Shown: piece by piece, positions 18,953 to 64,000 of the stretch
Numbering within the stretch: the stretch's first letter is position 1
Layout: every line of letters starts with the position of its first letter
Assembly (NCBI RefSeq): GCF_028502605.1
Contig: NC_079236.1
Span: 3,782,001 to 3,846,000, forward strand
Reading direction: 5' to 3'
Length of the DNA: 64,000 nucleotides
DNA from: Trichoderma breve
Lineage: Eukaryota; Ascomycota; Sordariomycetes; Hypocreales; Hypocreaceae
Position numbers and translations under genes: made by a program
The notes under the pieces: generated by a model
What the model saw: only the letters and a program-made list of their open reading frames with translations
What the model was told of the DNA's origin: nothing
The model's database searches: none

Positions 18953-20033
18953 GGCGATGCGAACGGTTGATTTGGGTGGCAAGTTGGACGTGTTCACTGA
19001 CACTGCTGATTGAAAGGCCCTCGCAATTCCGGCTGAGGGAACTTGGATTCACGTGTTTGCCAATACTACTTTACTCATGCTACCAACTGCAAAGCTTGTC
19101 ACATGCAGAATCATGAAGAACACGTCCAACAGCTTGGGGGCCAAAATCCACAATGGCACAAGCGCCCCGACCGTCTCTGATAGGTTGCTCAAAAATTATG
19201 CGTTCTGTACAAAGAAGATCGCTAGTGACACGTCCCTAAGTCATCTTCAGTGCATTTAAGCCTCTGGTTCCTGGACTAGTAAGTTTCTAACACAGTTATT
19301 CGCCACAATTAACTAGCTATATACATCTATTACCCATGGCTAACGTAGTACCCGATTGCCAGTAATAGGTTTGGGTTACTCTTTTGGTAATTAATTCTAG
19401 ACCATAGCAAGTCTACTGTTACTAAATGCGTCGAAGCCCTGAAGTGGGTATGATTTTGTCACCGGGCTGAAAAACAACCTGAAACTTTTACCTGCTAGTA
19501 TACATACAGAAGGTCAGTGTCCAAAGTGCTAATCAGCTACCTATTGGGAAGTATCGTTGGATGCAGTTGGATGCAGTTGGATACAGTTAGAGACGGTTAA
19601 ATGTAGTTGAACGCAGTTAGATGCAGTTAAACACGGTTAAATATAGTTTAATGCAGTTAGATGCAGTTAAATCCAAAATCTGCATAGAGTTGGTGGGTAC
19701 CAGGCTCCTCACACAGCCGTGAAAATAACATCTAGTCGCCGAATGGCATATGCAAAAGACAGAAGTGAGATGTGTGTTTGTTTGTTTTGTTTGTTTTAAT
19801 ATTAACGACCATAAGTATCTAGCTAGATACACAAATCCTCATCTGGGCAACAGGTCGGTAGGAGCCAGTTTCCGTCTTAATAACCTCCACGTGGTCTTGT
19901 TCTTTTAAGACCGGCCTAGTTAAACAGCAAGCTTCATGTATACACTAATACTGTAGAGTGTAATGGGCGCAGTAGGCCTAATAGACGTAGTGGATTTAGT
20001 AGATCTAGTATCTATGGTAGCTATAGTATGTAG
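18953..20033. other. intergenic region with tandem-repeat patches
   Basis: Holds the M3 peptidase promoter and then AT-rich DNA with no coding signal. It carries the 10-bp tandem array described separately (19551-19670) and the start of a degenerate GTAGTAGAC-like array from about 19970. Confidence 0.55.
19551..19670. repeat. 10-bp tandem array (ATGCAGTTRG-like), about 12 units
   Basis: Twelve successive decamers sit exactly in 10-base phase. The consensus is close to ATGCAGTTAG, with variants such as ATACAGTTAG, AGACGGTTAA and ATGTAGTTGA. Most differences are transitions, as in a decaying minisatellite. Confidence 0.85.
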
Positions 20034-27508: not shown

Positions 27509-29229
27509 ATGATGCTTGCACACATTGAACAGCAAAACAGCCACTCGTCCGGCTACTCTGTGACTATGGCGCCTTACGACATGGAAGTGCTTGACGACAC
27601 CAAGCATGATGGGGCTGAAGAGATTGAGAAGATGGAAGACGACACTGCCAACATGAAGCCTACTAGTGAGACATTCACTCCGGAGGACGAGAGACGGCTT
27701 ATTCGGAAACTCGATTTCTGGTATGATACCCCTCTCGCTTTAGTTGTTTATACCCTTTCCCCGTGATCAATGGCTCACTCAATTGTAAAGGATTATTCCA
27801 CTTATGATGGTGACGTATACACTGCAGAGCTACGACAAGGGTGTCATGAGCGCCGCAACACAGTTCAACTTCAATGCAGACTTGAAGCTCACCACGATTG
27901 TTGGTCATTTGCCAGACGGAACCCCAATCACGAATAACCAGAAATACGCCAATGCCTCGATGATGTTTTACATCGGATATCTTGTCGGTACATACCCGAT
28001 GATGTTCTTGTGTCAGCGCTACTCAACATCGCGAGTGGTGTCAGTCGCTACATTCCTCTGGGGAGCTGTTCTGATGTCCACGGCTGGCTGCTTCAACTAT
28101 GCCGGTATTATGATCAATCGCCTTTTCCTGGGTTTCCTCGAGTCAGCCGTTGCTCCCTCCTTTACTGTCCTGGTTACCTTCTGGTGGACACGAGAAGAGC
28201 AGACCCTGCGAACTGGGTTCTGGTACAGCTGTGTTGGAGTTGCCACAGCCATATCGCCCCTCATCAACTACGGCTTGGGCCAGATTCACGGCTCACTGCC
28301 TTCTTGGAAACCAATCTTCTTGATTCTTGGCGGTGTCACCATCTTGTGGTCCATTGTGCTCTTCTTCTTCCTCCCTGATGACCCCATGACAAGTAAACGG
28401 TTGACAGAAGCCGAGAGACACATTGCTATTTGCCGTCTCGAAAGAAACAATGCCGGTACCGTAAGCCACGAATTCAACAAGGCCCAGTTCTTCGAGGCTT
28501 TCCGCGATTACAAGCTGTACAGCAGCGCCTTCATAGTGCTTCTTACCGGTGTGCCATCGGGAGCCCTTGGAACTTTCGGTACTGTTGTGATTAACGGATT
28601 TGGATTCGACCACTTCGATTCTCTGGCTCTAACATGTCCCATTGGAGCGATTACTGCCACTTCGATTCTTCTCTCGGGCTACATCACACGGAAATGGAGA
28701 AACATGCGTTACCTGCTGATTATTATCTGTGGTCTGATCTCCATCGCGGGCACTCTCATCTGCTGGTTCGGACCTCGGAGTAATCGAGGATTGTTGTTTG
28801 CAGGTGTTTTTCTCATTGCTGTTCAAGTTGCTTCTGGAGGAATTGCTGTCTCTCTGACGGCATCGAACATAGCCGGACATACTAGTAAGCTTTTTTCCCC
28901 TCTTGTGGCATCTGTCTTGTGTGGAACAGCATCTCACAAAACTTTTAGAAAAATCCACTGTCAGTGCCTCGACCTTCGTTGGATACTGCGTCGGAAATGT
29001 CATTGGTCCAGTGATCTTTGGCGCGTCTCCGGGGCCAATCTATCACGCGGGATTTGTAGGAAGCTTTGTCTGTCTGTGTGGAGTGGTGGTGATTGCGTCC
29101 ATTACTCTTATTGCGTTGCGTATGGAAAACAGAAAGAGAGACAAGCGAAGCGGCACACCCATGGGTCTGCACTCAATTGATGAGGATCTTACTGATATCC
29201 AGAACAAAGATTTCAGATACGTCTTGTAG
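27509..29229 (+). CDS. MFS transporter, anion:cation symporter (allantoate permease-like) family
   Basis: Plasma-membrane secondary transporter of about 12 membrane helices. Exons 27509-27720, 27791-28884 and 28949-29229 give 528 residues. The soluble N-terminus ends in DERRLIRKLDFW, the usual lead-in to helix 1 of ACS-family carriers. Then come SYDKGVMSAATQF, a RLFLGFLES loop and the PDDP motif in the central loop, all seen in Dal5/Tna1-like permeases of carboxylates and nitrogenous anions. The substrate cannot be named. Two adjacent ATGs open the frame (27509, 27512), and a third in-frame Met at 27566 is possible. Its divergent arrangement with a Zn2Cys6 factor suggests substrate-induced expression. 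Confidence 0.92.
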
Positions 29230-36343: not shown

Positions 36344-37358
36344 ATTACAGGAGACAACACTTTCTTTACCTTTTCATTTGTATGCTTCTCAATTCACATG
36401 TATTATTAGGATACTGGCGGTTGGGTTCTGGGTGGTGTTTTGAAATGTTGCTTGAGCTTGCTTACAATACCAGTATGGAACGGATCAAGAGACTGATGAA
36501 ACGCTGTAGTTTTCTTTGCCTTATTTAGTTAATTGTGCTCAGTACTATGCTATTAGTGGTTACATATAAACATAAATAAATATTTAATTTTTTTGATCCT
36601 TTCTCTCGGCTTTGCGGCAACATGGCGGACTTCCATCACACCACCCTAACCAATGAAAGTACCCTCACACTTGCAAGTGGCTAGAGTATCTAGGAACTTA
36701 ACCCCTGAACTTTTTATGAGTAAAAGCTCTTACACCATTCATGTGGTTTCCACTCGGCTAAAGTCATCGGTGAGTGTATGGATTATCATCAGACTTCCAT
36801 TACGCCTGGCTTCGACTATACAAGCAAACTTAGGAGGTTGTATAAACTTCATCATACTTCATTTTATATCTTAACAGCATGGCACTGAAATAGGAAGCTA
36901 TTTGAAGTACTGACTATATTGGGTGTAGAGATATTCCTTGTTCACACCGCTTATTGTTGCTCTGATACTCTCAGACTCGAACCAATAACACAATGGATTG
37001 AGATTCAAAACTGGCGCTATCAAATTTCACGGGCGAATTTGGTAGGTCGTAAGTCGTAGGCATCCATTAATAGACACATTGCTTATTTCTTATAGTCTGG
37101 ACCATGTTCAGTATATTCATCTAAAAAGCATGATACTGAAATAGGAAGCTGGGGCTAGCGCTTAACACATCATAATGCATGTCATTGACAGACACGAGAG
37201 CTCGAAACAAGGCCAAATAACTCGTTTATTGATTACCAGGTTAAAGCATTCCTTACGAAACTTTTCCTATAAAGGATCAAAACTGAGCCAGAGTGATGTT
37301 CATATTTCTCTTCGAAGTCTTCATTGACATTTTTCTTCTAATAAACATCATTGTAATC
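36344..37358. other. intergenic region with a short direct repeat
   Basis: About 1 kb, AT-rich. The 18-mer ACTGAAATAGGAAGCT plus flanks occurs twice (about 36884-36899 and 37135-37150), roughly 250 bp apart. No coding sequence is supported. Confidence 0.5.
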
Positions 37359-39305
37359 ATGACTTGGACAAAGACCATTGCCTATACGCTGGCCACGTGC
37401 TCGCTCTGGCTTCCCACTAACGCCGACAATGTCTGGCCAAATGAAGCAACTGACGAGCTTGAGAAAATGCTGTTCGAACAACAGAACCCTTTTGAAAGCA
37501 GCCTTGCCACCTTTGCTGTCCCTTGCAGTGCCAGTGGTCTCGCCATCGGCCGTGGTTTTGGTGCTGAGTGGATCAGAAACGCATACCATGACATGGCCAC
37601 GGCAGACGTGCAAGCTGGCACTGGAGGAATAGATGCCTCGATTGTTTTCGAAAAGGATCGCCCAGAGAATCCTGGCGCTGGTTTCCAAGAAACATTAGAC
37701 TTTTTCCGGCCAAGATATACCACCCGATCCTCGTTAGCTGACCTATTCGCTATGGGGGCGGTTTTTGGAGTTGGTGGATGCTCAAATGGAAATATCATCC
37801 TCCCCTACAGGGCGGGTCGTGTTGATGCAACCGGCCCAGGCCCTTCTGGAGTTCCAGAACCACAGGAGGACCTTGCCACACACACTGCAAAGTTCGTGAG
37901 GCAGGGTTTCAACACGACTGAGATGATTGCCCTTGTTGCCTGTGGGCATACCGTTGGAGGTGTGCATGGTGTAGATTTTCCAGAAATCGTGCCGAACCCA
38001 CAGCCCCCTCCAGTTACTGGCGTTCGTATATCCACTCTCTTTGACCAACAGAGGCTTAGCGATTATTCATGCATGCGGCGGCTAATGTTGACCATTTAGC
38101 CTTTCGGTAATGACAATACGGTCTTTTTTGATACGACGACAAGCAATTTCGACAACCAGGTGTAAGTCGGCCTTGGCACCTCGTGGTCAACTAAGCCCCC
38201 CTAAACCCATCCCGTCGACATGTAACTGATCTTGACCAAACAGTGCCAAGGAATTTGTAGCCAATATTTCTCAGAATCCACTTGCATTTGGCCATAATGA
38301 GACAACGCGATCGGATTTCCGCATTTTCAACGCTGATGGCGGTGATATGATCTCACGAATGGCTGAATCACTAGATTTCTTCTCTCAGACTTGCGCTACG
38401 CTGTTGGAACGTATGATCAATACGGTGCCACCAAGTGTCAAGCTAACTGATGTTCTTCAACCCCTGCCCGTTAAGCCAAGAAAGTGGTCTATAGACGTCA
38501 ATGCGGATAAGACGCTGACCGTCAGTCTAACTTTAAGAGTAAGTACTAGTAATAGCACCAACAAGAACGGGTGAGAGCCGCAAGAAACTAATTTTTCAGA
38601 TTGTCGATACTCTGCTGGGAGGTGGCATCCAGGCCTTGGTCAAGCCAGTCTCACGCACCGGCGCGGCTTTGCCTGCCACATCGCCCGTCGTTATTGGAAA
38701 CATATCTACTTCAACCTGCGACTATCCTAACTGCGGCCCAAGCTTTGTTTATCTTGACTACAGTATCAATATTCCTGCTGAGCAAGGCATATCCTCTTTC
38801 ACTGTTGACATTACGGACGGCAGTGGAAAGACTACGACCTATAACAATGGAGGCGCCGGATTTCCTCTGTCTGATGTTGTTCAGCCACAGATGAGCCTCA
38901 GCACGCAAACTACGAAAACTGTCAACGGTGTCACTCTTCAACAACTCAATGTGACTGCAGCGGTATGATTGACCCCCATTGTGCGACAGTATGTTAAATA
39001 AGAGTGGAGTAGCTAACAGAGTATTTATGCCTCAGGTCTACAATGCTGACCAGTATACTAACATCTCGCTTATCGTTCCTCAGCCTTCAAACTTCAGTGC
39101 TACCATAAGCCCATGGGTTGCGGAGGTGGCCCCCATGAAGGCTTCCGGCAAGATTGCAGGGACCAACTACACTCTCTACACTGGTTCGTGGTTGGCCAGC
39201 GACGAGAGCGCCCCTCAACATCCTTTCGATGTTCTTGCCACAGGTCCACAGGGCAGTGCTTCGAGCACATTCAATTCGTGGGGGGACGTGCCATTCGTTC
39301 TCTAA
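37359..39305 (+). CDS. secreted haem peroxidase of the plant-type superfamily
   Basis: Five exons (37359-38021, 38100-38161, 38244-38538, 38600-38962, 39036-39305) give 550 residues. A signal-like N-terminus (TIAYTLATCSLWLPTNA) precedes the peroxidase domain. The distal site is WIRNAYHDM with Arg73 and His77; the proximal haem ligand is His197 in ACGHTVGG. Other family blocks are SSLADLFAMG, YRAGRVDA and GPSGVPEPQEDLATHTAKF. After about residue 320 a beta-rich C-terminal region of unknown role follows. The class is the fungal extracellular peroxidase group resembling class II enzymes; the substrate is unknown. The first intron uses a weak GTTCGT donor at 38022, chosen because it restores the frame into PFGNDNTVFFD. 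The frame begins at 37293, but ATG 37359 places the signal peptide first. Confidence 0.85.
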
Positions 39306-41127: not shown

Positions 41128-42921
41128 TTACAAGTGGCTAGAGCGTATAGGAGCGTCGCCTTCCGAGACTCTGTTAATCAAATCCCTCATCTCATCTATA
41201 TGCTTCTCACAGATACCTCGAGGTGTTGTCTTATATTTTTTGCATAACCGGGCAGCTGCCGCAACAGCAACGGCGTGTTGCCCTCCGTTACCCATAAACT
41301 TTGTGTTTGACGAAGCAACGTGGGTTACACTAATATGCTTCCCCGCCATCATCAGGTTGCTGATATTCGCAGAGTAGAGACAGCGAAATGGAATGTCGTA
41401 GGGCTTTCCATCCCGCTCGTCCCATTCCCAGTCTTGAAGTCGGAAGTCATAGTCTTGATTACCAGGGATATGCAGACAAAATGCTCCTTCGTTCTGCACA
41501 ACAGCATCGGGAAACATTTTGTGATTACGGACATCGTTTTCCGTAAGAACATAGTCGCCCTTGTATCTCCTAAATTCCCCCTGTGCGGGCACAAAAGCAA
41601 CCAAGTCTAGTGCAAGATTGGCATACTTTTCGGGCTCCAGCCTCTTGACATTGGAGAAGGTGCCGTAAATGGCACGCAGGAGATGATCACGAATACGCTC
41701 TCCGTTCTTATATGGATCGAGAAATTGGCCATATTCCCAATAGTGCGTCATTTCTTTTCGCATGCGTTTGCGAGCTGTTGGGCCCACACCATCTTCTATA
41801 CGAGGACCCTGGCCGTTCTCTTCTCCATACTTGACAAGCTGGCCTGAGAGGTTGGAGAATTCTTTGGACACCTCTGTAGCCCAGGGAACGGCTGGAAAGG
41901 AAACTGGCGATGACGCCATTTTGGTACGAAAGAATAACGTGTTGCCGTGATGTGCCTGGTCACCTTGTAAAGGTGCCAGACTTTCGCCGTATTCGTCCCT
42001 AGACTCGCGTCCAAACAAGGTCTCTGCTCCTGCGTAGATTCCAAGAATGGCTTTTCCTGAAGAGTCTATAAAGATGGATGCAGAGAGGCGGATTTCACGT
42101 CCGCTCCGAGCATCACGGGCATCGATTGAAGTAATCCTTCCTTTGGCAGTTGCTACTGAATAAACTGTATGTTCCGTAAAGACCGTTGCATTAGACTCGG
42201 CCTGGAGTAGTTGAAGCGCAATTAAGTCGCCATTCTCACGACGCTCATAAATTTCATCGACAATCCGCCCAACTTTTCCTCGTGGGCGCAGTCCAATCTC
42301 TGGGCTTGCGTTGCCACCCAAAAACGGACGGTCGTGGACCAGGGCCACACGTTCTCCCAAACGTGCCGATGCTAGAGCAGCAGTGATGCCGGGCACTCCG
42401 CCCCCTACTACGATAACATCAAAGGTTCCTGCATCAACCGGCTCATTTGGAAGTCCTCTTAGCCGCCTTCGCCACGAGCGCTGTTTCTCATCCGCCGCCT
42501 CGGGAGGAGGAGTATCGGCGGTGCTGAAGAAAAGAGCGTCGCAGCGACCACAGAATCCGGTCAAGTCATGTAGCGCAAGCTTTAGTGAGCCAGAAGAAAG
42601 CTCTATCTGGCCTCCGAATTGCCAGCTCCAATCTTTATTATTTTCTCCAAAGGTTGTATCGAGGACACGTCCATTGACAACAACGTTGAATCGCCCCGGG
42701 TGATGATCAGGAACCCAGTCTTTGGCACGAACCCATATGTTGTAATTTCCAGATTCTGATACTTTAGCAGTAGTTGTAGCATCAACGACTGGTGTCCCGT
42801 TGCCATGAGCTAGAAGATACGGCGACCCCATCTCCAGCTCAAATTGGGAATCCAAGACCCAGCCGCCGAAGTCGTCAAAGGACTCGGCCTCTACGAGGAA
42901 CTCGTGACTTCCAGCGGCCAT
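41128..42921 (-). CDS. FAD-dependent oxidoreductase with N-terminal beta-sandwich domain
   Basis: Single-exon, 597 residues. Residues about 5-130 (from FLVEAESFDDFGGW to CDALFFS) look like a galactose-binding or CBM-like beta-sandwich. A linker rich in Pro, Arg and Glu leads to a Rossmann entry DVIVVGGGVPGITAALASARLG, with a following GGNASPEIG. These mark the FAD_oxidored (PF12831-like) family, common in Bacteroidetes and Planctomycetes gene sets for polysaccharide or sugar-acid use. The C-terminal block contains SNTKFMGNGGQHAVAVAAAARLC, closing the FAD site. No signal peptide is obvious. The absence of introns in an intron-rich neighbourhood and the bacterial-style architecture suggest, but do not prove, horizontal origin. 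Substrate unknown. Confidence 0.85.
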   Translation of the reverse strand: MAAGSHEFLVEAESFDDFGGWVLDSQFELEMGSPYLLAHGNGTPVVDATTTAKVSESGNYNIWVRAKDWVPDHHPGRFNVVVNGRVLDTTFGENNKDWSWQFGGQIELSSGSLKLALHDLTGFCGRCDALFFSTADTPPPEAADEKQRSWRRRLRGLPNEPVDAGTFDVIVVGGGVPGITAALASARLGERVALVHDRPFLGGNASPEIGLRPRGKVGRIVDEIYERRENGDLIALQLLQAESNATVFTEHTVYSVATAKGRITSIDARDARSGREIRLSASIFIDSSGKAILGIYAGAETLFGRESRDEYGESLAPLQGDQAHHGNTLFFRTKMASSPVSFPAVPWATEVSKEFSNLSGQLVKYGEENGQGPRIEDGVGPTARKRMRKEMTHYWEYGQFLDPYKNGERIRDHLLRAIYGTFSNVKRLEPEKYANLALDLVAFVPAQGEFRRYKGDYVLTENDVRNHKMFPDAVVQNEGAFCLHIPGNQDYDFRLQDWEWDERDGKPYDIPFRCLYSANISNLMMAGKHISVTHVASSNTKFMGNGGQHAVAVAAAARLCKKYKTTPRGICEKHIDEMRDLINRVSEGDAPIRSSHL

Positions 42922-44071
42922 GGCTTGAGTAAAGGTAGCAATGGTAGCACAGTAGACAATAAAGAAGGCTCGGCAACCGAAATGTTATCAATGATGTGAA
43001 TCAAATACAGGATAGTTTATAGATGAGACGATTGATTGATATCCGTTTGCTCAAGGCAAGTTATATACATCTCGTGGCCTCGGTTTACCTCCACATTATG
43101 AAATAGTAATCAACAACCGAGTTTACTTTTTAAAGCCGGATTGTTGCCGGAAGCGTCCGACGGCTGAAGATTAAGGTACAACACATGGCGAATAGCAATG
43201 AAGTGTATGGAGTACCATGTGAGGTTAAAACAATGCCAGCGTGGAGAATACTACTCCATTAGCTAATTTGAGTGACTAAGGCGGCAGATACTTCGGCAGC
43301 TGTGCTGTAATGAAGAACCTGGGGAGGTGGCGAAGGGGGAAGAAGGAATTGGCTCAATGGTTGAACAACTTACCTAGGTAATTACCGGCAGGCTTCATAT
43401 GTGCAGAGACTATACATGAAGTCCCATCAGTTTGTCATTAGCAGCCATAAAAATCACGTTACTGATGCTATCATGTAATATCTCTTATCTAATTGCAGTC
43501 ATTCAATAGCATTTACAGCTTGAGTGGCGAAAGGGAGATGCTTATTTGTTACCCTGTAGTCATCTAAATCGAGTGTCCGCCCAGCGTATAGTTGACTAAA
43601 TGAGGTGAGATAAAGGAGACATGATATACACACACTGAGGTGAATCATAATTGATCCGGTATAGGAAGAGAAACATCTTTACAGAGTCATTGCAATCAAC
43701 TGTCTTGTTCCGGATACCGCGGATGCCGAAGAGCTGCGAGACACGGCGTCTTCAAAATGCCCAAAGAAGAAAGAGTTGATGATTGTTGTGCTGACTAATT
43801 TTGATTACATACGCAGAGTTGGCGCGCTAGAAGAGATACCTTTCGCATGTACCTGCGATGCGGTCCGATGAATCGCCGAGTCGCAAAAAAACCACCCCGC
43901 CATTCATTTTGGGTGAGTCAATCTGCCCCGCGATAAAAGGACATTTTGGTAGGTTCGATTAAAAAAAAGTTGGATAACAGACGACACTGCGAATTGCATC
44001 ACCAACCACCGCGACAGAGAGAAACCAGAAGCATCAAATCAGGTACTCGAGGAATTCACAAGGGGAGCGCC
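42922..44071. other. divergent intergenic region
   Basis: About 1.15 kb between divergent genes, holding the promoters of the FAD oxidoreductase and tyrosyl-tRNA synthetase. No coding sequence, repeat or RNA gene is seen. Confidence 0.55.
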
Positions 44072-45797: not shown

Positions 45798-46978
45798 CTA
45801 CTGATCTTGACCTTTTCCATGATGTTTCACTGATGACTCAGGGACCATGGTTGATCCATTGTGCCTCGAGACTACCCAATCTCGAAGTTTCGCAAAATTC
45901 CGGCATGTGTGTGGAACATCAGAGTTCACGTAGTTTCTTCCTAGATAATCCGTCCATTCTGTAGGTATTAAGGTCATGTCTCCCGAGCACATTAACATCT
46001 GTCGAATATGATCGATGCAATGTTCTATAATAAAAAGTAAAACTTGTTAGTGTACCATGCAATTATTTAAACGCTAGGATTAAATCAGCTGCGCATACCT
46101 TGGTGGATGATTGTATTAGGATGCGTAGACGGTGGATAGTAGTCTGGCCAAAATGATTGCCGCAACCGGTTCTATTCACTGACATTAGACCCGTTCAAAA
46201 TGGCTGAGAAGTATGGGACCTGGATAGAATCGAACATACCAAGCAATGTAGAGCATGAAACATGTCAATTCTAGTAGGATTAGTATAGCTTGATAAATGT
46301 TCAGCTTTCAAAGAGAACATACCCTGCCATATAACCACCCACTTTATCATTCCAATATACATCCGAGGCACTTCCAAACGCCTCGATGGCTTCTTCAGCA
46401 GTGATTCGGAAATATCTTCCTGCATGATAGTTAGCAATAAGTAATTGTTAGAGTTTAAACTGGGCAGTAAACTCGCCAGCTGTAATTTCTTCCCATGCGC
46501 TGTCAATCTCGGGAGAAGGGGGGCCGGTATATGTTGTCTTCCCTGGATTTGGTACGTGGAATGTGCCATTTTCCATAAAGACTGGAGCTCCTGTGAATGT
46601 CACTATTTCCAACTCAATTTCCGATGATGCGGACTCTATCATATCAGATGGTCAGTTTCTGTAGGACTTCTATGCTGCATCAAGGTACGTACTGAAATCG
46701 GTTGGGCGAAGTAGAGAATATTCTTCGGATTGACATGGCTTGTCCCTAAGTTCATATTGAGCGAAAGAGATGATCATGAATACCAAGGTCAGAATCCATG
46801 GTAAAGCTTGAAAAGGTAGCGACTGTGTCCATCGCCTGGAGCGCAAATGAACTTCTTCTAGCTCTATACCATCATCTATTTCGCTCTTCGTAGAATCTTC
46901 TATTGAAGCTCTGCCCAACAGCGCATAATCTTTCTCCAATGAAGACATATTTTGTAACGAACGTTTAATTCGCCACAT
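45798..46978 (-). CDS. UstYa-family (DUF3328) oxidase, copy A
   Basis: Members catalyse oxidative cyclisation or modification of fungal ribosomal peptides. Six exons on the minus strand (46978-46693, 46635-46477, 46419-46323, 46270-46240, 46171-46099, 46024-45798) give 290 residues. One membrane helix (ALPWILTLVFMIISFAQY) follows a short cytosolic tail. Both HxxHC motifs are intact: HALHC before LNRLRQSFWPDYYPP, and HQEHC before IDHIRQMLMCSGDMT. A PHTCRNFAKLRDW block ends the domain. Intron 2 must use a GC donor (GCGAGT at 46476) to match the homologous junction in copy C; a GT alternative (46463) gives a less family-like join. The frame begins at 46984 with GTG; ATG 46978 and 46948 are the candidates. 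It lies 0.7 kb downstream of the repeat-bearing precursor gene on the same strand. Confidence 0.9.
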
Positions 46979-47713: not shown

Positions 47714-48118
47714 TTACCTTTCACCTTTGCGACCGCCGTCTCCCTCATCATCGCCCTCATACCGCTTCACTTTCTCGCCCTTACGGTCGCCTTCTCCTTC
47801 GTCGTCGCCCTCGTACCGCTTCGCTTTTTCTCCTTTACGACCGCCATCTCCTTCGTCATCGCCTTCATAACGCTTCATCTTTTCACCCTTACGATCTCCA
47901 TCTCCTTCATCATCTCCTTCGTAACGCTTGCTGAAACTGGTTTGAACTACATCAATTGAGCGTCCAGCAAGATCCAAAGCACCTAGATATGTGTTTTAAA
48001 GTTAACACTGACTCAATTGCACGCATTATAGCATCTACTTACCCCGGGCTGGGATAGCAACAGCGGCAGTGATATACGCTGTAGCCAGTAGGCTAACTAT
48101 TGCTTTGGTGAATAACAT
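47714..48118 (-). CDS. secreted repeat precursor of a dikaritin-type RiPP
   Basis: Two exons (48118-48043 and 47982-47714, GTAAGT...TCTAG intron of 60 nt) encode 114 residues. A clear signal peptide (basic FTK, then a hydrophobic core to TAAVA) is followed by a short leader ending in SFSKR. Four units then follow, each starting YEGDDEG and preceded by Lys-Arg: YEGDDEGDGDRKGEKMKR, YEGDDEGDGGRKGEKAKR, YEGDDEGEGDRKGEKVKR and a shorter final copy ending GGRKGER. This is the layout of UstA/PhomA-type precursors: signal peptide, Kex2 sites and identical cores with a modifiable aromatic residue. The cores are very acidic. UstYa-family genes on both sides support the assignment. The product cannot be predicted, and no identical core is known to me. 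Confidence 0.88.
47717..47923 (-). repeat. 54-bp coding repeats of the RiPP precursor, 3 full and 1 short copy
   Basis: Units at 47870-47923, 47816-47869, 47762-47815 and 47717-47761 (coding order). The amino acids are almost constant, while many third codon positions differ between units. Confidence 0.93.
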
Positions 48119-48842: not shown

Positions 48843-50255
48843 ATGCACGGCGATATGGAGAGATTTGGCACTACTCGCCCAACAGCCAAGTATCGTGCCG
48901 TATATTGCTTTCAACACATCTATCCGGCAATAGTCAAGCTAGGCGTATTGCTTTTGCCAAGCTGGTTACAATCCGATTCAACTTATCGTCCGACTTCTAC
49001 AAAGAATGTACATACAACAAGCTATCTAGACGGCCTAAGAGGCCTCATATCTATTCTGGTTTTCGTCCGTCATTTTTCTCTTCCGTGGCAAAAGCACATG
49101 GATTACGGCTATGGATATGAGAATTACTATGGAATACTTCGCTTGCCAATCTTACGCCTCATGTATGCTGGTCCATTGGTGCCCATGTTCTTCATTGTTT
49201 CCGGCTTTGTCCTCTCCATCAAGACCTTCAAGCTAGCTCAAGTAGCAGCACATGATTGCCTTTTTCTAGCTTTGTCGAAGTCATCTTTTCGGAGAGCAAT
49301 TCGTCTCTTTTCACCACCAATTATTACAACCTTTTTTGTCATGGTGCTTGCTCAACTCGGGAGTTTTTCTTTCCCATATTCCGATATGCCCGGGAGAAGA
49401 CCAGTTCATCCTGTAGCTGAGAGTTCATTCTGGCTTCAGTTCATTCGCTGGGCAAATTTCGTTAGCGATGAGTTGGTTAATCCATGGCGATGGGACGTCC
49501 CACGCTTAGAGTACGGCCCTCATCTCTGGACAATCCCAATATCGTACAAGGGGTCATTGGTTGTATTTCTTTTGTGCCTCATGCTCGCACGCGTGAAGCC
49601 GAATGTCCGATTATGTATACTTTGCAGCCAAATGGCCTATGCCCTTATGCAGGGCCGCTGGGACATCGCACCCTTCTTAGCTGGGATGGTTTTATCCCAA
49701 CTTAGTCTTTTTCGTTCAGCAGACACACTTCCCCAATCCAAAAACACCAAGAATCACCAATCTCTAGGTTACGTTGGAGACATACTGGATTTTCTATTGC
49801 TACTGTTGGGCCTATACATCGGCTCATTTCCCCGACACAACAAGGGAACGGACTGTGTCTCTGGCTATCGGTTTCTATGCACCATTACACCCAATTATCG
49901 ATACTGGCATGATATTTCTGCTTTTAACATTATATGGGCACTATCTCGACAAAGATACCTTCAAGTCCCTTTAAGCTCTGCTACGGCCCAATACTTTGGT
50001 AAAATATCTTTCTCTATGTATCTCATACATGAGCCAATGCTACATGTCTTTGGATACTTCACTGTTCCGTTCTTCTGGAAATTTACCGGAACTGATTCAA
50101 TATTTCACTACCAACTTGGATTTGGGCTTGGTATGCTTGTAACTGGAGTTGTCTTAATCTGGCTCTCTGACATATTCAAGAGGGTCGTGGAAGATGCATG
50201 TGAACGTTTCACTACTTGGGTAGAGAAGTCATGTTTTACTACGCCATCAGTATAA
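48843..50255 (+). CDS. membrane acyltransferase, acyltransferase-3 family
   Basis: Single-exon, 470 residues with about ten hydrophobic segments. The family start YLDGLRGLISILVFVRHF contains the catalytic His-type motif near the first helix. The block PMFFIVSGFVLS follows, and the C-terminal KISFSMYLIHEPMLHVFGY is the other hallmark of acyltransferase-3 (PF01757) proteins such as OafA-like and fungal secondary-metabolite O-acyltransferases. It probably transfers a small acyl group from an acyl donor to a hydroxyl or amine in the secretory system. It is divergent from the RiPP precursor gene, so shared control is likely, and the mature peptide may be acylated. That link is inference; the family also includes sterol and sugar acyltransferases. 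Confidence 0.85.
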   Translation: MHGDMERFGTTRPTAKYRAVYCFQHIYPAIVKLGVLLLPSWLQSDSTYRPTSTKNVHTTSYLDGLRGLISILVFVRHFSLPWQKHMDYGYGYENYYGILRLPILRLMYAGPLVPMFFIVSGFVLSIKTFKLAQVAAHDCLFLALSKSSFRRAIRLFSPPIITTFFVMVLAQLGSFSFPYSDMPGRRPVHPVAESSFWLQFIRWANFVSDELVNPWRWDVPRLEYGPHLWTIPISYKGSLVVFLLCLMLARVKPNVRLCILCSQMAYALMQGRWDIAPFLAGMVLSQLSLFRSADTLPQSKNTKNHQSLGYVGDILDFLLLLLGLYIGSFPRHNKGTDCVSGYRFLCTITPNYRYWHDISAFNIIWALSRQRYLQVPLSSATAQYFGKISFSMYLIHEPMLHVFGYFTVPFFWKFTGTDSIFHYQLGFGLGMLVTGVVLIWLSDIFKRVVEDACERFTTWVEKSCFTTPSV

Positions 50256-50475: not shown

Positions 50476-51541
50476 TCAGTCTTGAAACACCTGGGTCTCC
50501 CCTCTCCAATGCTCCCAGACATCAACATCTGGCAGATGAAGATTGCCACCGGCATGGTATCGGTTTCTTGTCCACTCTCTCAGTTTGTCAAAATTTCGGC
50601 AAGTATGAACAACATCTGAGTCGGCATAATTGCGTCCTGGGTTTGCGTAATATCGAGTCCCGTAGGCAGTCATATCCCCAGCACACATGATATACTGACG
50701 AATTTGATCGATGCAATGACCTGCAAGTGTAATATCGACTAAGATCAGCCCATTGCACTATGGTGCGGATATGTATGCAAAGGGTGGATATACCTCTATG
50801 TTTCAATGCCGCCTCCTTGTGTTCAGGGTCGATTGGATAATAATCAGGATAGTAATATTTTCGGAGATTATCCTGTATGAGTTAAACAGTGAGTTATTGA
50901 CATGGGGCTAAGAACGGGGTAGTTTGGTTAGTAGTAAACAAGCACTTACTAGACAATGTAGAGTGTGAAAGACGTCCAGTCCCACAGTGTACCCTCCTTT
51001 TCTATGATGCCAATGAATCTCATATTCGTCTGGCCAAAGCGCTCGCGCCTCGTCTTTTGTAATCATAAAGTCTCTCTCTATGACGTAAAGTAAGACTCAG
51101 ATCGTGAAGATTATGGATAAATACTCACCTCCGGTGAGATTACGCCATGCGTCGTCGACCGCGGGACTTGGTGGCCCTATGTAGTCGATTGGGGAAGGAT
51201 TCGGGATAAAAAATTGGCCATTTTCGTCGTACTCTGCATTTCCGTGAAACCGAACCTGGTGGTACTCAATCGACTCTCTCGCAGCGGCTTGTTCTCTTGC
51301 GTCAATATCAGTGTGACTGTATATCTAAGTGAGAACACTCACGAAAATCGGACTGCTTCCATTCTGGAAACTCGGTAGGCTTTGTGACCCATATGTAAGC
51401 TATAAGGCTTAGCGAAACAAAAGCAAGTATTCCTGTGCTTGCTATCCACGGCAGAATTCGTTGTCTGGGATCCGATAAAGGCCTTGGAATAAAATGGTCA
51501 GATTCAGAAAGTAATTCCGATGATTCCTTTTCATCGTCCAT
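50476..51541 (-). CDS. UstYa-family (DUF3328) oxidase, copy C
   Basis: Five exons on the minus strand (51541-51343, 51293-51129, 51077-50950, 50872-50794, 50720-50476) give 271 residues. One membrane helix (ILPWIASTGILAFVSLSLIAYIWV in part) follows an acidic tail. The HTLHC motif is followed by LDNLRKYYYPDYYPIDPEH; the second motif, HRGHC, by IDQIRQYIMCAGDMTAYG; and the domain ends with VHTCRNFDKLREW. It is closest in this window to copy A, with the same intron positions, so the two are likely paralogues. The upstream frame starts at 51607 with TTG, hence ATG 51541. It is divergent from copy D across 555 bp that contain a CGG-N10-CCG palindrome. Confidence 0.9.
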
Positions 51542-52096: not shown

Positions 52097-52976
52097 ATGT
52101 CGCGTGGATATATCAGCATTTCCAATGCAGATCTTGCCCTGACAGAAGATCAGGACTGTGAAGAAAGCATCGAAAAGACTACTATTGATACTGCAATTAC
52201 TTACAGATGGGGGAGTATTGCGTGGGTTTCGATTATTATCTTTGCAACGGGAGTACCACTATTGCTCCTACTACTACTTCATGAAGAGAATCGACATGAG
52301 TTCATCCTCCCAAACGGTTAACAACTTTGCGAAACCCGAACATGGTTGGTTCAGTTAACCTAACGGCTCAATAATGATAGTGAAATACAGCACACCCGTG
52401 ACGTTCCAGCCGAATTATCTCTATTGGAACGTCTCCAGCGCCGAGTCAGCTCACGCGTGGGAACTTGTTAGTGAGTAATCCCCTGTGTGTAGCATTCAAG
52501 TGACCAGTGAGAACGCTGACGAAGAGCCTCGTTGGTGCAGATCATCATGGGGAAATTTTCCTACTAGGCTCGAAGAGATATAATCTCCCACCGGGAATTG
52601 AGAGAGCAAATGGTTATCAGTCGTATCCGTTGTCAGCTTTTCATCAACTACATTGCCTAGTAGGTAACACTAATAGCAAGCTCAACATTCTATCGCCACT
52701 CATACTTTATTGTTCTAGAAAATGATCAGAAAACATTATGCGGCATTGCTCAACAAAGTCATATTGAACGACCCTGTGGATAATCATATTGAGCATTGCT
52801 TTGACTATCTGCGTCAGTCAATTATGTGTGCAGCAGACATGACAATTGAACAAGCACGAGTCGATCCTGACGGTCATCGAAGAGCGGTAGATGGGTGGAA
52901 GACGACACACCAGTGCAGGGACTGGGAAAAGGTTCTGGAAGCAGTGCGACCCTTTGGCTGTAGCAATTGTAAATAG
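52097..52976 (+). CDS. UstYb-like (DUF3328) oxidase, copy D
   Basis: Four exons (52097-52316, 52381-52466, 52525-52659, 52719-52976) give 232 residues, short for the family. A membrane helix (IAWVSIIIFATGVPLLLLLLL in part) follows a short tail. The YNLPPGIE segment is typical of the UstYb/CctO-like branch. The motifs HQLHC (followed by LKMIRKHYAALLN) and HIEHC (followed by FDYLRQSIMCAADMTIE) are intact, and the domain ends in THQCRDWEKV. The donor after HAWEL is taken as GTTAGT at 52467; the stronger-looking GTGAGT four bases later would need a 37-nt intron to stay in frame. It is the first of two tandem plus-strand copies. Role as in copy A: oxidative tailoring of the peptide, inferred from family and neighbourhood. 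Confidence 0.87.
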
Positions 52977-53323: not shown

Positions 53324-54292
53324 ATGGCTTACAAAGGCATATCCGAGGAAAATACTGGAATGGATGAAGAGCAGCATGTTCCATTTCTGCCACCTATAGA
53401 TCATCCAGGCCGTACATCTGAGAATACAAAGCAAAATATTCGACCGGATTACTTGAAGATAGCCATGTATGGACTGCTTGGTTTATCTGCAATGTTAATT
53501 ATCGGCGGTTTAAGGTCAAAGCCTACGTTTGAAGGATGTGTGAAACATTTACATGAGTGGTGTAAGTTTCAATGATAGGCCCTACGTCAGTGGAACAACA
53601 ATAACGTAATTTGATGCCATGTATAAATAGCGCCAATGTTGGAAGCATTTGAATATGATGCCAGACCGAGAATTGGAATGACTTCAAATTTTATATACAT
53701 GGGGCATCCTACATCAGTTCTTGAACAAGCCTGGGACAGTCTTTGGCAGTGTGAGCCCTTTCAACTTCTTACTATTTACACTCTTACATCTGACGTTTTA
53801 TTCTAGTCGGATCATTCGGGTTCCCAGAAGAACAACTTCCGCTACTCCATAAATCCAGCACAGAACATGATTGGCACCATCTGCCGGAGGCAGATGGTGG
53901 AGGTATTCAAGCTTATGTTGAAGGCTTCCATTACATTCACTGCTTGGTATGGATCATTCAGTTTGCAATCGACACCACTGAGAAACTGCTAATGAGCTTA
54001 GAACCTCGTACGTCAGTTTACGTATCGGAATGAGTATGATTATAGCGATATTCATGCTTTCAATAACCCTCATATGGACATTATGGACCACGTTGAGCAC
54101 TGTTTGGAAATGCTCAGAGTGAAAATAATGTGTAATGCAGATTTATCCATTTACCCGGTATCAAGAGACACAAGCGATGACAGGACGATTCATGTTGAGA
54201 GGCAAAAACAGGTGTGCCCAAAATTTGAGAGATTAGTTAAATGGGCAGATGATCACATTACTGTGCCATTTCACAAAGAAACAGAGGGATGA
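53324..54292 (+). CDS. UstYb-like (DUF3328) oxidase, copy E
   Basis: Four exons (53324-53561, 53631-53750, 53807-53946, 54002-54292) give 262 residues. The N-terminal tail (with FLPP) leads to the membrane helix LKIAMYGLLGLSAMLIIGGL. SPMLEAFEY and EQAWDSLW are standard early blocks of the family. The first catalytic motif is HYIHC, with NLVRQF after it; the second is HVEHC, followed by LEMLRVKIMCNADLSIY. It ends with a CPKFERLVKWADDH block. It resembles copies D and F more than A and C. Its motif histidines are all present, so it is predicted active. It is followed within 76 bp by the 3' end of copy F, a convergent arrangement. Confidence 0.9.
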
Positions 54293-54367: not shown

Positions 54368-55470
54368 TTACAAGGAAATGGCAAATTGACGGAGTGACTC
54401 ATTGCTACTCGTAAAGCGTTGTTGAGCCCAATGAAGTATCTTGGGGTAATTCCGACAGATATGATCATTTCCGGTGACAGGAACAGTTCCTTTTGAAGAA
54501 TGGTTGGTGTTGGCGATCAAGTACAGAGTGGCATCAAAATTGCAGACTAATTCTCTGCGAAGAGCTTCTATACATTGGTTGACTTGTGACCTCAAAGGCA
54601 CTTCAACATATGTCTCGTTTGGCACCATGTAGACATACTGACGAATCAACTTCTATGCATCTTGTTTCTTAGTATTCTTGATATGCTATATATTGCTACA
54701 AGAGTGCTAAGCACTTACCACGCAATTTAAATGTAAAACTACTCCAAGAACAGCATGTTCGCTAGAATTTGAGCGGCTATTCAAAGGAACTTGACTCACT
54801 CCGTCTAAAATAAGTTACATTAGCAATCCATTACTTTGATCTGATCTCTGAATTATCTGACGCAGTATTGATAGGTACTAACACGGAGCGAATTCTTCCC
54901 AAGCTGCTTCGCGATCAGGTGTTGGTGGTCCTCTATAGGTTTCACGATCTGAGTAGTGATCACGAAAATTTTCCCGTTGATATTCCACGGCCTCAAGTGC
55001 AGGTGCTATAGTAGGGTTCACAATATTAGTTATTATGAGAAAATCGGAGTCGAGATAAATTTGAAATGGAATATTGATAACACGTACTATTGGGGAAGAA
55101 AAGGTTTGTACACGCTACATCTGAAGGAGCACGCAGAGCTTGGAAGCCATAAAATATACTGGAGGCAGCAAAGCAAAAAATGCAGAGCGCTAAATAAATC
55201 CAGCGCAAAAGCTGCCGTGTATTATCGCGTTACTTTAACAACATAATGTCAAATACCTCGCAAACATCTCTTTCTCCAGGTTTTATCTAAGAAAATATGA
55301 AGAAAGCTAGTGATAGTCTTCACCTGGCAAATAGATGATTCATTATTCAGATATTCATTCCTCAGAGAATATGTGGAAGTACTTTGAGTGGAATAAGACA
55401 AACCTGTAGTAGCGGCTGTGATGACTATAGAATTGTAACTCGCTATAATACAGGGAGTTTCCCTATGCAT
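54368..55470 (-). CDS. UstYb-like (DUF3328) protein, copy F, both HxxHC motifs degenerate
   Basis: Exons on the minus strand: 55211-55088, 55005-54883, 54804-54719 and 54652-54368, plus a proposed first exon 55470-55324 that supplies the only in-frame ATG (254 residues in total). The fold markers are intact: a membrane helix (WIYLALCIFCFAASSIFYG), TPALEAVEYQRENFRD, TYRGPPTPDREAAWEEF and a final HICRNYPKILHWAQQ. The two catalytic motifs are not. Where family members have HxxHC, this protein has LHLNC at the first position and QVNQC at the second. Splice sites and frames are otherwise sound, so this is a structured but possibly non-catalytic member rather than a random wreck. The first-exon donor (GTGAAG) is weak, so the start is the least certain part. 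Confidence 0.72.
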
Positions 55471-56018: not shown

Positions 56019-58186
56019 ATGGGAAACATCAACATTTTGTCTAGTTCTCTTCCACAGATACCACCGGCCTTTGATGCGACACCGTTATCATTAATTGAAG
56101 AAGCCAAAGCTCTCATTGACCATACCCGTACTGTCTGGGATGAGGTCGCTCTAAACGTACAACCTAACCATGCGACGTTCGAGAACACCATCATACCTAT
56201 TATTACCGATGAAAACCAGAAATATACCAGATTGAGAATTCTCAGGTTCTACAGCTCTACATCACCATGCAAAGAGCTACGAGATGCATCTAATTCTGCT
56301 ACCTCAATGTTCAATGATGCTGATGTGGAATTGTACTCTCGAGTGGACATATATCACCTAGTTAGTGCAGTATTGGATGGCATTCATCAAGAACGGAAAG
56401 ACTTGGACGATGAGTCTATTTATTACGTCGACAAATTACACCGTAAGCTTAGGCAAAATCGCTGCGGAATTACCGACGTGGGAAAAAAGAAAGCTTTCGA
56501 GCGAGCTCAGAAGAGGATTCAAGAGCTAGTAACACAATGCACCTCAAACTTTCATGAAGATAACTCTGGCATCTGGCTTTCCATTAAAGAGCTTGCAGGC
56601 ATACCCGAAAGGATTCTGGCTCAGCTCAAGCAAGGCGAAGGCGACCATGAGGGCCAAGTCTGGGTGAAGACCAAGGTTCCACATCCGTTCAAGATCATCT
56701 CACATGCGAAGTCGGAAGACACTCGCAGAAAAGTGTACTACACGATGAAAAATAGGTTACCACAAAATATACCTTTGTTTCGCCAGCTGGTTCTCTGCCG
56801 AGACGAAGTCGCTAGATTATTAGAGTACCCAAACTACTTAGCTTACAAGACAGCTGATAAGATGGCCCGAACACCCGAAAAAGTCATTACTATTCTAGAT
56901 GAAATTAGACATAGAATTCATCCACACGCTGTCAAGGCCGCCGATGAGTTACTGGATTTAAAAATTAAAGACGCTATTGCAAGAGGAGAGACTGCAGAGG
57001 ATCAGAAACTTTTCCTCTGGGATGAAAGCTTTTACGCAAGAATACAACTACAAAAAGAATCAGAAATCCGGTCGACAATATCAGAATATTTCGAACTATA
57101 TCACACATTGGATAAACTATCAGAGCTTCTCGGACACATATTTGATACTCGGTTTGAGCTCATTACTCCTGAACAGCAGTCTGTGCTAGGAGATGGAAAG
57201 CCCCTTGTCTGGCATAACGATGTTTTGATGTACGCTGTTTGGGACACTAGAAAACCAGGCGAATTCCTTGGTTATGCTTATTTCGACCTCTTTCCTCGCG
57301 AGGGAAAATATGGACACGGCGGAAGTTATGCGACGCAATGGGGATTTACTAAGCCAGACGGCAGACGGTTCTATCCTTCTTGTGCCCTGGTAATGAACTA
57401 CACGAAGTTGGACTCAAAGCCAGTTTTGCTAAGCTTAGTGGACGTCCGAAAGCTCTTTCATGAGCTTGGACACCTTCATCATTCGTTATGCACTAAAGTT
57501 AAATACGCAACATTATCCTACATTGATAGGGATTTTGTGGAGGCGCCAAGTCTTATGTTTGAACAGTTCTTTTGGAAGCCCGACATATCAAAGACCTCTC
57601 TTACCACTACTCTTATCTTTCTCCAGACTACAAGTCTGCGTGGCTTCAGGAGAATAAGACTAGGGAGGAACAGCTACCTGCGCAGCTGAGCGACAAAGAC
57701 GTCGCCGGGCTGGCCACACATGATCCAAAAAGGTTTATCAGTCGCGAGAATTATAATCTCTTCTTATCATACTTTGATATACTTGTCCACACTCCTGCTA
57801 CGCTGAAATGTTCAATAGACTGCAGACTGATATCTTGGCAATGCATGGCGGAGAGGCAATTGGCGATGGCTGGGATTGGAGTCATAGAGAGTCTGTGTTT
57901 CGCATGATTGTCAGCGGATATGATGCTGGGTATTATACATTTGTTCTGTGAGTGCCTTTGCATCTTCTTTTCCTTGTAGGAGAGCTTCATACCTAATCAG
58001 TCAATCAGTGGTCGAGTATTTGCTTTAAATATGTGGAACCGTGAGTTTAAGGCAAACACTCTCAACAAAGACGCTGCAAGGCGATTTCGAGATACTGTCT
58101 TTTGTGTAGGAGATAAGCAGCCTGAAGAAAAGACATTAAAGGATTATCTTGGCCGTGAGCCAGGTACTAGTCCTTATTTCAAATAG
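56019..58186 (+). pseudogene. M3 metallopeptidase gene with two frame lesions
   Basis: Paralogue of the intact peptidase at 16608-18952. From ATG 56019 the frame runs unbroken through the catalytic HELGHLHH (His481) and the Glu-bearing FVEAPS. Near 57578 the homologous reading jumps to the next frame, as if one base were missing in a CCC run, and continues to VHTPA. At about 57808 it jumps again, with roughly ten family residues absent between VHTPATL and MFNRL. It then goes through YDAGYY, a GTGAGT intron (from about 57947) and a final exon ending at 58186. No intron placement explains the two jumps. The protein made today would end soon after 57660. M3 oligopeptidases occur in some phomopsin-type clusters (from memory), so an ancestral role in trimming the RiPP is possible. 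Assembly error is an alternative. Confidence 0.75.
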
Positions 58187-63191: not shown

Positions 63192-64000
63192 ATGGGCATT
63201 TTCATCAGCAACGACGCTGCAAAAATCGTCACCCCAGTCAAGCTCAGCTTGGCTCTTCCACTCGCCGTTATAGTGTTTGTAAGTTGAACTCTGTGATGAG
63301 ACTTTTGCTATGTTGACATGTCGGTGCTATCATATAGAGCTTTGGTTACTTTGTCTGGCTTTGCATCTACAATCTCTACTTTCACCCCTTGAGCAAGTTT
63401 CCCGGCCCCAAGCTGTCGGCCATTTCTCGCTTTCCTTACTCCCGCCTCCTTATCAGTGGTGAGGGCCACCGCGATGTTTTGGATCTTCATCTCAAGTATG
63501 GTCCCATCGTCCGCATTGCTCCCGACTTCCTGTCTTTCAGCCACCCTGATGCTATGAATGACATTCGTGGTCACCGCAAGGCTGGACAGCCGGAGCACCG
63601 AAAGGATCCTATTCGTCAAGAGTTACATGTAACCAACATCATTGGTGCCAACCGTGCTGATCACACTCGCTTTCGAAGGAGCTTGGCAAACGGCTTTTCT
63701 CATCAGGCCATGCTGGATCAGGAGCCTATCATCCGTGACTACGTTGAGGAACTTATGAAGTCTCTTGAGAAGAATGGCGCAAACGGAACTCAACCGATTG
63801 ACATGGTTCGCTGGTTCAACTATGCGACATTCGACATAATCGGCGATTTGGCCTTTGGTGAATCATTTGGCTGTCTCCAAAGCTCCACATATGATCCTTG
63901 GGTTCAGCTCATCTTTAACAGTGTCAAGAATTTGGTCTACATCGGTGCCCTCAAACATCTCAAAATAGTCCCTAAACGCCTGTTGAAATTCATCTTGCCA
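63192..64000 (+). CDS. cytochrome P450, N-terminal part (3' end outside window)
   Basis: Exons 63192-63278 and 63338-64000 (open at the window edge) give 250 residues so far. A hydrophobic N-terminal anchor (LSLALPLAVIVF then FGYFVWLCIY) leads to FHPLSKFPGPKLSAISRFPY, the proline-rich hinge of fungal microsomal P450s. HLKYGPIVRIAPDFLSF (beta-1), HTRFRRSLANGFS (C helix) and a FDIIGDLAFGESFGCL block follow. This matches the isotrichodermin-hydroxylase-like group (CYP65-type) used in many secondary-metabolite pathways. The I helix, ExxR and haem-binding Cys lie outside the window, so activity cannot be judged. It is 5 kb from the last cluster gene. Confidence 0.92.

What the first reader, a model, noticed from the sequence alone, without database searches (positions are those of the whole stretch)
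47714..48118. Candidate new dikaritin-type RiPP precursor with an acidic Tyr-first core
The sequence shows a signal peptide, four repeats each preceded by Lys-Arg, and a constant YEGDDEG core. Known UstA-type cores (such as those of ustiloxin and phomopsin) are short, Tyr- or Phe-containing and mostly hydrophobic; a core this rich in Asp/Glu is unusual to me. If modified like other dikaritins, the single Tyr per repeat would be the cross-link donor, giving a strongly anionic cyclic peptide that might bind metals.
Basis: partly seen in the sequence, partly recalled or inferred. Interest (0 to 1): 0.92.

Follow-up and report, generated by a model that had tools for sequence, protein, structure and literature searches.

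The report
Acidic fungal RiPP precursor, UstYa cluster
A Trichoderma-like fungus carries a small secreted protein made of four acidic, tyrosine-led repeats beside a set of peptide-modifying UstYa genes, so it very probably makes an unknown modified peptide; one of the five UstYa proteins has lost its copper-binding residues, as have its closest relatives found in other fungi.

Summary
On the minus strand at 48118-47714 a gene with one 60-nt intron encodes 114 aa: a signal peptide and four Lys-Arg-preceded units YEGDDEG[D/E]G[D/G]RKGE. The repeats differ mostly at silent codon positions (42 silent, 7 replacement). Five UstYa (DUF3328) genes and an acyltransferase gene lie within 8 kb. Homologues occur in other Trichoderma and, weakly, in Echria macrotheca, apparently on one contig with a UstYa orthologue.

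This is a UstYa-type Kex2-processed RiPP precursor, a new member of a known kind. Its unit is the most acidic of 11 compared in this genome. Gly at position 3 rules out the ustiloxin/phomopsin cross-link to residue 3.

Orthologues in T. afarasin, Rhypophila and Echria share the loss, and a second such gene sits in the only other UstYa cluster found here with the same acyltransferase family. In this strain gene 5 and a neighbouring M3 peptidase gene look disrupted. Product, cross-link and metal binding are untested.

The parts
48043..48118 (-). precursor exon 1: start codon and signal peptide MLFTKAIVSLLATAYITAAVAIPAR
   Evidence: hydrophobic first 20 residues; similar N-terminus in P0001-P0003; no signal-peptide program was run
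47983..48042 (-). 60-nt intron GTAAGT...CTAG
   Evidence: annotated homologues align without a gap across the join
47714..47982 (-). precursor exon 2: leader end ...SFSKR, then four KR-preceded units YEGDDEG[D/E]G[D/G]RKGE..., stop
45798..46948 (-). U1: UstYa (DUF3328), both HxxHC present (HALHC, HQEHC); exon model approximate
48843..50255 (+). Acyl_transf_3 membrane acyltransferase, single open frame
50476..51541 (-). U2: UstYa with TM helix and both HxxHC (HTLHC, HRGHC); 90% to a partial T. harzianum protein (79% of the query covered), 65% to Podospora aff. communis (99% covered)
52097..52976 (+). U3: UstYa, both HxxHC (HQLHC, HIEHC); N-terminal exons approximate
53324..54292 (+). U4: UstYa, both HxxHC (HYIHC, HVEHC); exon model approximate
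54368..55244 (-). U5: UstYa lacking all four His of the double HxxHC (LHLNC, QVNQC) but keeping both Cys; this strain has an in-frame stop just after the orthologue's start
56019..57950 (+). M3-family peptidase gene; reading frame changes twice, the first time with no room for an intron: looks broken; membership of the cluster unproven

Best explanation
The gene encodes a secreted precursor with four near-identical peptide units. It enters the ER by its signal peptide and is cut after each Lys-Arg by the Kex2-type protease in the Golgi. The Tyr-first peptides are then oxidised by the copper-dependent UstYa proteins encoded next to it (U1-U4), most plausibly by joining the single Tyr to a carbon of Asp4, Asp5 or Glu6, and trimmed at the basic RKGE..K end. 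The Acyl_transf_3 protein may acylate the product or an intermediate. U5, a UstYa without copper ligands, most plausibly acts as a non-catalytic partner (dimer subunit or substrate binder) in strains where it is intact. Shown here: precursor structure, selection on the repeat, gene linkage in this genome, loss of the His ligands in the U5 lineage. Inferred: Kex2 cutting, which enzyme does what, the cross-link, trimming, acylation, the role of U5.
For: Precursor anatomy and intron; peptide-level selection, 42 silent vs 7 replacement codon differences; homologues with the same units at 93, 86 and 86% in Trichoderma and a weak one in Echria (E 6.5e-3); five PF11807 genes within 8 kb; one Kex2-like P-domain gene found in the genome; in Echria the precursor homologue P0004 and the U5 orthologue P0033 are both listed with longest contig 754949, so by equal length probably the same contig; 8 of 13 other UstYa loci examined in this genome also have a dibasic tandem-repeat array nearby (one further flagged locus discounted, see full report). 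Published survey: 1758 of 7878 Kex2 repeat proteins have DUF3328 neighbours, and Tyr-bearing repeats are commoner among those (65.6% against 38.2%; PMC7329392 section 7).
Against: No expression or product data. No tyrosinase match in the window, and the only tyrosinase gene found in the genome is on another contig. Gly at position 3 breaks the YxI cross-link precedent. In this strain U5 and the M3 peptidase gene look disrupted, so the cluster may be partly decayed. Synteny in other Trichoderma could not be read. The Echria homologue has only one YEGDDE unit and its gene model looks truncated, and a U1-like Echria protein (P0019) is listed with a different contig length.
Confidence: 0.78

Rival explanations
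1. An unmodified Kex2-processed repeat protein: the units are released as linear acidic peptides with a signalling or pheromone-like role, and the UstYa genes nearby serve another substrate.
For: Most Kex2 repeat proteins (6120 of 7878) have no DUF3328 neighbours, and some, such as yeast alpha-factor, are linear (PMC7329392 section 7). The core lacks the YxI pattern of ustiloxin and phomopsin.
Against: Five UstYa genes surround the gene; in that survey pheromone-type precursors lack DUF3328 neighbours apart from three exceptions (abstract); apparent linkage to a U5 orthologue in Echria.
Confidence: 0.12
2. The cluster is a relic in this strain: U5 and the peptidase are broken and no finished product is made, although relatives make one.
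For: In-frame stop just after the orthologue's start in U5; two frame changes in the M3 gene.
Against: The precursor is under selection at the peptide level; U1 and U2 align to relatives exon by exon without a break, U2 at 90% to a partial T. harzianum protein covering 79% of the query. The M3 gene may not belong to the cluster, and U5 might start from an unrecognised upstream exon.
Confidence: 0.2
3. A secreted acidic repeat protein with a structural or metal-binding role that is not cut into peptides.
For: Strongly acidic repeats; in T. compactum one unit lacks its Lys-Arg.
Against: Each unit of the window's protein is preceded by Lys-Arg; few homologues (4 proteins at E<=10 of about 63-199 aa); UstYa linkage.
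Confidence: 0.03

Closest known systems
Dikaritins (ustiloxin, phomopsin, asperipin-2a) and their UstA-type precursors
   Same: Signal peptide, repeated units at Kex2 sites, Tyr in each unit, UstYa/DUF3328 genes adjacent (five here; five reported for phomopsin, two for ustiloxin, one for asperipin-2a, PMC7329392 section 7)
   Different: Tyr directly after Lys-Arg, Gly at position 3, acidic core; no tyrosinase match in the window; an Acyl_transf_3 gene and a His-less UstYa in the cluster
Kex2-processed repeat proteins (KEPs) with DUF3328 neighbours (Umemura 2020, PMC7329392)
   Same: Fits the class description given in the abstract and sections read
   Different: No paper in the library searched holds the string YEGDDEG.
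DUF3328 copper enzymes (CctR, PMC12435403)
   Same: U1-U4 carry HxxHC(x)nHxxHC, the binuclear copper site reported for CctR
   Different: U5 keeps both Cys but has none of the four His; in CctR alanine substitutions of the motif's His and Cys abolished activity
Second UstYa cluster of the same genome, G000:C3:3504-3524 kb (L017-L019)
   Same: Repeat precursor, several UstYa, an Acyl_transf_3 gene (28% identity, E 1.7e-49) and a His-less UstYa (RNLGC/RVDGC)
   Different: Precursor unit is unrelated ([C/Y]NIPWTKNYGEYDEKR...)

Membership tests
Dikaritin / UstYa-type RiPP cluster | Precursor with signal peptide and repeated units separated by Kex2 sites | tested here: met
   signal peptide judged by hydrophobicity and homologues only
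Dikaritin / UstYa-type RiPP cluster | DUF3328 (UstYa) genes in the cluster, the class-defining enzyme in a later definition (PMC12048977 section 23 passage) | tested here: met
   five PF11807 loci, five of five gene models above the family cut-off
Dikaritin / UstYa-type RiPP cluster | Tyrosinase in the cluster (five-gene definition quoted in PMC12048977; the same paper says clusters without it are not uncommon, section 21) | tested here: not met
   PF00264 finds one gene (two matches) in the genome, on contig C4
Dikaritin / UstYa-type RiPP cluster | Methyltransferase in the cluster | not tested
   no dedicated search; no methyltransferase family among the 20 proteins scanned
Dikaritin / UstYa-type RiPP cluster | Transporter or peptidase in the cluster | tested here: inconclusive
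   M3 peptidase gene present but its frame looks broken; transporters were not searched for systematically, the one scanned (MFS_1, 27789-29177) lies 17 kb left of U1
Dikaritin / UstYa-type RiPP cluster | Tyr side chain oxidatively cross-linked in the product | not testable with these tools
   needs mass spectrometry and NMR
Kex2-processed repeat protein (KEP) | Secreted protein with near-identical repeats bounded by dibasic sites | tested here: met
DUF3328 copper enzyme (for U5) | Double HxxHC copper site | tested here: not met
   U5 reads LHLNC/QVNQC; its three orthologues in a 30-sequence alignment read LNQQ, LNQR, LNQR at the four His columns, the other 27 of 30 read HHHH

The most novel reading that the evidence does not exclude
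There is a distinct subclass of fungal UstYa RiPP clusters, marked by a membrane acyltransferase and a UstYa that has lost its copper site but is conserved as a non-catalytic partner (or has gained a non-oxidative, for example acyl-transfer, role). The acidic Tyr-first peptide of this window is its product, a highly anionic, possibly acylated cyclic peptide.
Probability: 0.25. Interest if true: 0.72.

Novelty: new variant of a known kind. Interest (0 to 1): 0.5.

Why it matters
It adds a peptide family with an acidic, Tyr-first core to the UstYa RiPPs. The chemistry must differ from ustiloxin and phomopsin, because residue 3 has no side-chain carbon to attack. The larger question is what a UstYa without copper ligands does. 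A 2025 paper (PMC12435403) reports DUF3328 proteins as binuclear copper enzymes acting as disulphide-linked dimers. A conserved His-less member, found in the two acyltransferase-bearing UstYa clusters of this genome, makes the question of non-catalytic or heterodimeric UstYa subunits directly testable.

Tried and rejected
Widespread structural protein: not favoured, given the short hit list (candidates of about 63-199 aa only, so longer precursors would be missed) and a single copy in the genome. Tyrosinase-dependent ustiloxin-like route: no tyrosinase match near. Paper search for the core string: 0 papers. The Trichoderma RiPP paper PMC7099791 (Results section read) describes other clusters and does not mention this unit in that section. 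Solved-structure search with a UstYa (P0006): 17 weak hits, all PET hydrolases, best E 0.018, judged chance. AlphaFold models of P0006 and P0031 are of modest quality (mean pLDDT 70 and 63), and a PDB fold search with the first gave 0 matches at E<=0.001, so no structural claim is made. A first gene-model script was too strict and gave one model only; later ones give approximate exons for U1, U3 and U4. Their U5 N-terminus was wrong, as the orthologue alignment later showed. Paper search for DUF3328 with acyltransferase and precursor peptide: 0 papers. A six-term search around pseudoenzyme/heterodimer/DUF3328 found 37 papers with three or more terms; of the 10 listed only PMC12048977 held DUF3328 at all, and the other 27 were not seen, so it is weak evidence of absence.

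Full report
What is there. The finding's coordinates are exact. On the minus strand, ATG at 48118, a 60-nt GTAAGT-TAG intron (48042-47983) and a stop at 47714 give a 114-aa protein: MLFTKAIVSLLATAYITAAVAIPARG, a short leader ending SFSKR, and four units YEGDDEG[D/E]G[D/G]RKGE separated by KR. The first 20 residues are hydrophobic. No signal-peptide program was available, so the signal peptide rests on that and on the similar N-terminus of homologues.

Is it more than chance. Tandem Repeats Finder scores the array 234 (54-nt unit) and 294 (108-nt unit). Among the six pairs of units, over 14 codons, 42 codon differences are silent and 7 change the residue; random single-base changes in these codons would be silent about 20% of the time. 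The pairs are not independent, but the direction is strong: the peptide, including its RKGE half, is being kept. In the window and its 6-kb right flank this is the only array that meets the criterion (period a multiple of 3, open frame, at least two dibasic sites).

Relatives. A search of 5.77 billion proteins gave 4 with E<=10 among 3907 candidates: Trichoderma sp. SZMC 28015 (93%, 7 member sequences), T. velutinum (86%), T. compactum (86% over 84%), and Echria macrotheca (E 6.5e-3). The tool admits only proteins 0.55-1.75 times the query length, so longer precursors would not appear. Over 15 units in the four Trichoderma proteins, counting the window, Y1, G3, D4, D5, E6, G7, G9, R11, K12, G13 and E14 never change; position 2 is E 13 times and D twice. 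The first T. compactum unit follows Lys-His. The Echria protein shares the N-terminus and one KRYEGDDE, with the rest truncated or degenerate. There is no second copy in the own genome.

The neighbourhood. PF11807 (UstYa, DUF3328) gives 46 exon-level matches in the 38.5-Mb genome from 50 scored candidates, a lower bound by the tool's own note; I group them by place into 18 loci, and five matches are in this window. These resolve into five genes U1-U5 at 45.8-55.3 kb around the precursor, five of five models above the Pfam cut-off. U1-U4 have both HxxHC motifs (for U1, U3, U4; for U2). Between precursor and U2 lies an Acyl_transf_3 gene. An M3-family peptidase gene follows at 56.0-57.95 kb; its frame changes twice, the first time with no room for an intron, so it looks broken. 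A tRNA-synthetase-like gene bounds the cluster on the left (44251-44703 matches PF00579, class I W and Y). The genome search finds one tyrosinase gene, on another contig, and one gene with a Kex2-type P domain.

Linkage elsewhere. Fungal genomes other than the own one could not be read. Two indirect lines exist. First, the Echria precursor homologue P0004 and the Echria U5 orthologue P0033 are both listed with longest contig 754949; I infer the same contig from the equal length. Second, U2 and U5 orthologues at 90% and 92% are in T. harzianum and T. afarasin, the same genus as the precursor relatives, though not shown to be the same strains. Against this, the U1-like Echria protein P0019 is listed with a different contig length (2064662).

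How unusual is the acidic core. I fetched 13 of the 17 other UstYa loci, nine with about 20-37 kb and four with about 10 kb. The strict script flags 9 of 13. I discount L033, where only the strand opposite to the precursor-like frame has dibasic sites, leaving 8 of 13. Counting tandem coding arrays without dibasic spacing it is 10 of 13. The four remaining loci were fetched only as 1-kb pieces and not scanned for arrays. Across 11 units typed into (one representative per locus), the window's has the highest Asp+Glu fraction, 0.39 against 0.12-0.27, but its net charge is -2, L021 is -3, and the L021 unit also has a 7-mer with 5 acidic residues. Of the 11 typed units only the window's begins with Tyr, but the L017 array also holds a variant unit YNIPWTK... 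straight after KR, so Tyr-first is not unique in this genome. Published repeats of ustiloxin and phomopsin share an EDYXI pattern (PMC6339444, passages) and are cyclised between Tyr and the Ile two residues on (PMC7329392, passages). With Gly there, the present peptide cannot be joined in that way.

The UstYa that lost its copper site. In CctR the motif HxxHC(x)nHxxHC is the binuclear copper site, the enzyme is a disulphide-linked homodimer, and alanine mutants of the motif are dead (PMC12435403, abstract and passages). U5 reads LHLNC and QVNQC. In a 30-sequence alignment 27 read HHHH at the four columns, and the three exceptions are the U5 orthologues P0031 (T. afarasin), P0032 (Rhypophila decipiens) and P0033 (Echria), reading LNQQ, LNQR and LNQR, all with both Cys kept. 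A further Rhypophila protein, P0034, was left out of that alignment as a near-duplicate gene model; it shows the same losses by eye. The Rhypophila and Echria orthologues are 45-54% identical to U5, so the loss is old and kept. A survey of the motif in the other UstYa loci of this genome (all 18 loci touched; hits under 8 bits dropped; motif 2 of the C6:3310 kb gene unreadable at a fetch boundary, motif 1 of the L026 gene read only in part) found one further gene with neither motif, L018:7352-7801 (RNLGC, RVDGC). In four other hits (L018:6424, L021, L026, L027) the first His of motif 2 reads otherwise while the second is kept, perhaps at exon edges. One motif-2 reading each at window 50591 and L037:447 looked like run-on into an intron and was discarded. 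The Acyl_transf_3 search gave 6 matches, about five genes, two of them inside UstYa clusters: this window and the C3 cluster, the same two that have a His-less UstYa. If independent, the coincidence of two marked loci of 18 with the other two has probability 1/153 (my arithmetic). I noticed the link after looking, so this is a lead, not a test. The two acyltransferases are 28% identical (E 1.7e-49).

Caution about this strain. Aligning T. afarasin U5 to the window shows an in-frame stop just after the orthologue's start. Unless another start is used, U5 is not made here. Together with the M3 frame changes this suggests partial decay, or assembly errors.

Mechanism. Most likely: secretion, Kex2 cleavage after KR, oxidation of Tyr by U1-U4, C-terminal trimming of the basic end, possible acylation. 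Only the anatomy, selection and gene linkage are shown. Where the core ends is unknown. Metal binding by the product is possible for an Asp/Glu-rich peptide but nothing here tests it.

Verdict. A real UstYa-type precursor; new member of a known class, with a cluster variant (acyltransferase plus copper-site-less UstYa) that I did not meet in the searches, which are limited to the held library and, to 10 listed of 37. Fungal RiPP clusters of this general kind are common: 1758 of 7878 repeat precursors in one survey (PMC7329392 section 7), and 37-38 UstYa-like genes in two assemblies of one T. harzianum strain (PMC10416523, passage).

Mended on checking. The count of 8 of 13 now says that the script flagged 9; the claim that no other unit begins with Tyr was wrong for an L017 variant; the U2 match to T. 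harzianum covers 79%, not the whole; the Lys-His in T. compactum and the length limit of the homologue search were added; PF11807 counts are marked as lower bounds; the listing limit is stated. None of these changes the odds.

Noticed in passing
window 54368-55244 (-): UstYa gene U5 lacks all four copper-ligand His of the double HxxHC; the loss is shared by orthologues in T. afarasin, Rhypophila and Echria. In this strain a stop follows the orthologue's start.
   Followed up: yes
L018:7352-7801 (G000:C3:3514.8 kb): Second His-less UstYa (RNLGC/RVDGC) in a UstYa cluster that also has an Acyl_transf_3 gene and a repeat precursor with unit [C/Y]NIPWTKNYGEYDEKR....
   Followed up: partly
window 56019-57950 (+): M3 peptidase gene beside the cluster with two frame changes; a second M3 gene lies at 16913-19048 (-) in the window.
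   Followed up: partly
L012, L014, L016, L017, L021, L023, L026, L030, L032, L033: Tandem-repeat precursor-like ORFs at 10 of 13 other UstYa loci examined in this genome, with very different units (for example HEDTVVPDKQHYDKR, DKLQNLFYVPAGAEGESPEKR, TNDYPKYGKFGEFEAVNNEKR, and a Cys-bearing RGGGCGYYGKR/SEASTDACLLKR).
   Followed up: partly
L021:6721-7337 (-): A sibling repeat precursor with another acidic stretch (such as DEVPEDDEFGSW) just before its Kex2 sites.
   Followed up: no
window 63338-64000 (+): Part of a cytochrome P450 gene at the right edge of the window, 8 kb from the last UstYa; membership of the cluster unknown.
   Followed up: no
window 37287-38096 (+) and 41131-42984 (-): A haem peroxidase-like ORF (PF00141) and an FAD-dependent oxidoreductase ORF (PF12831) lie left of the cluster.
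   Followed up: no
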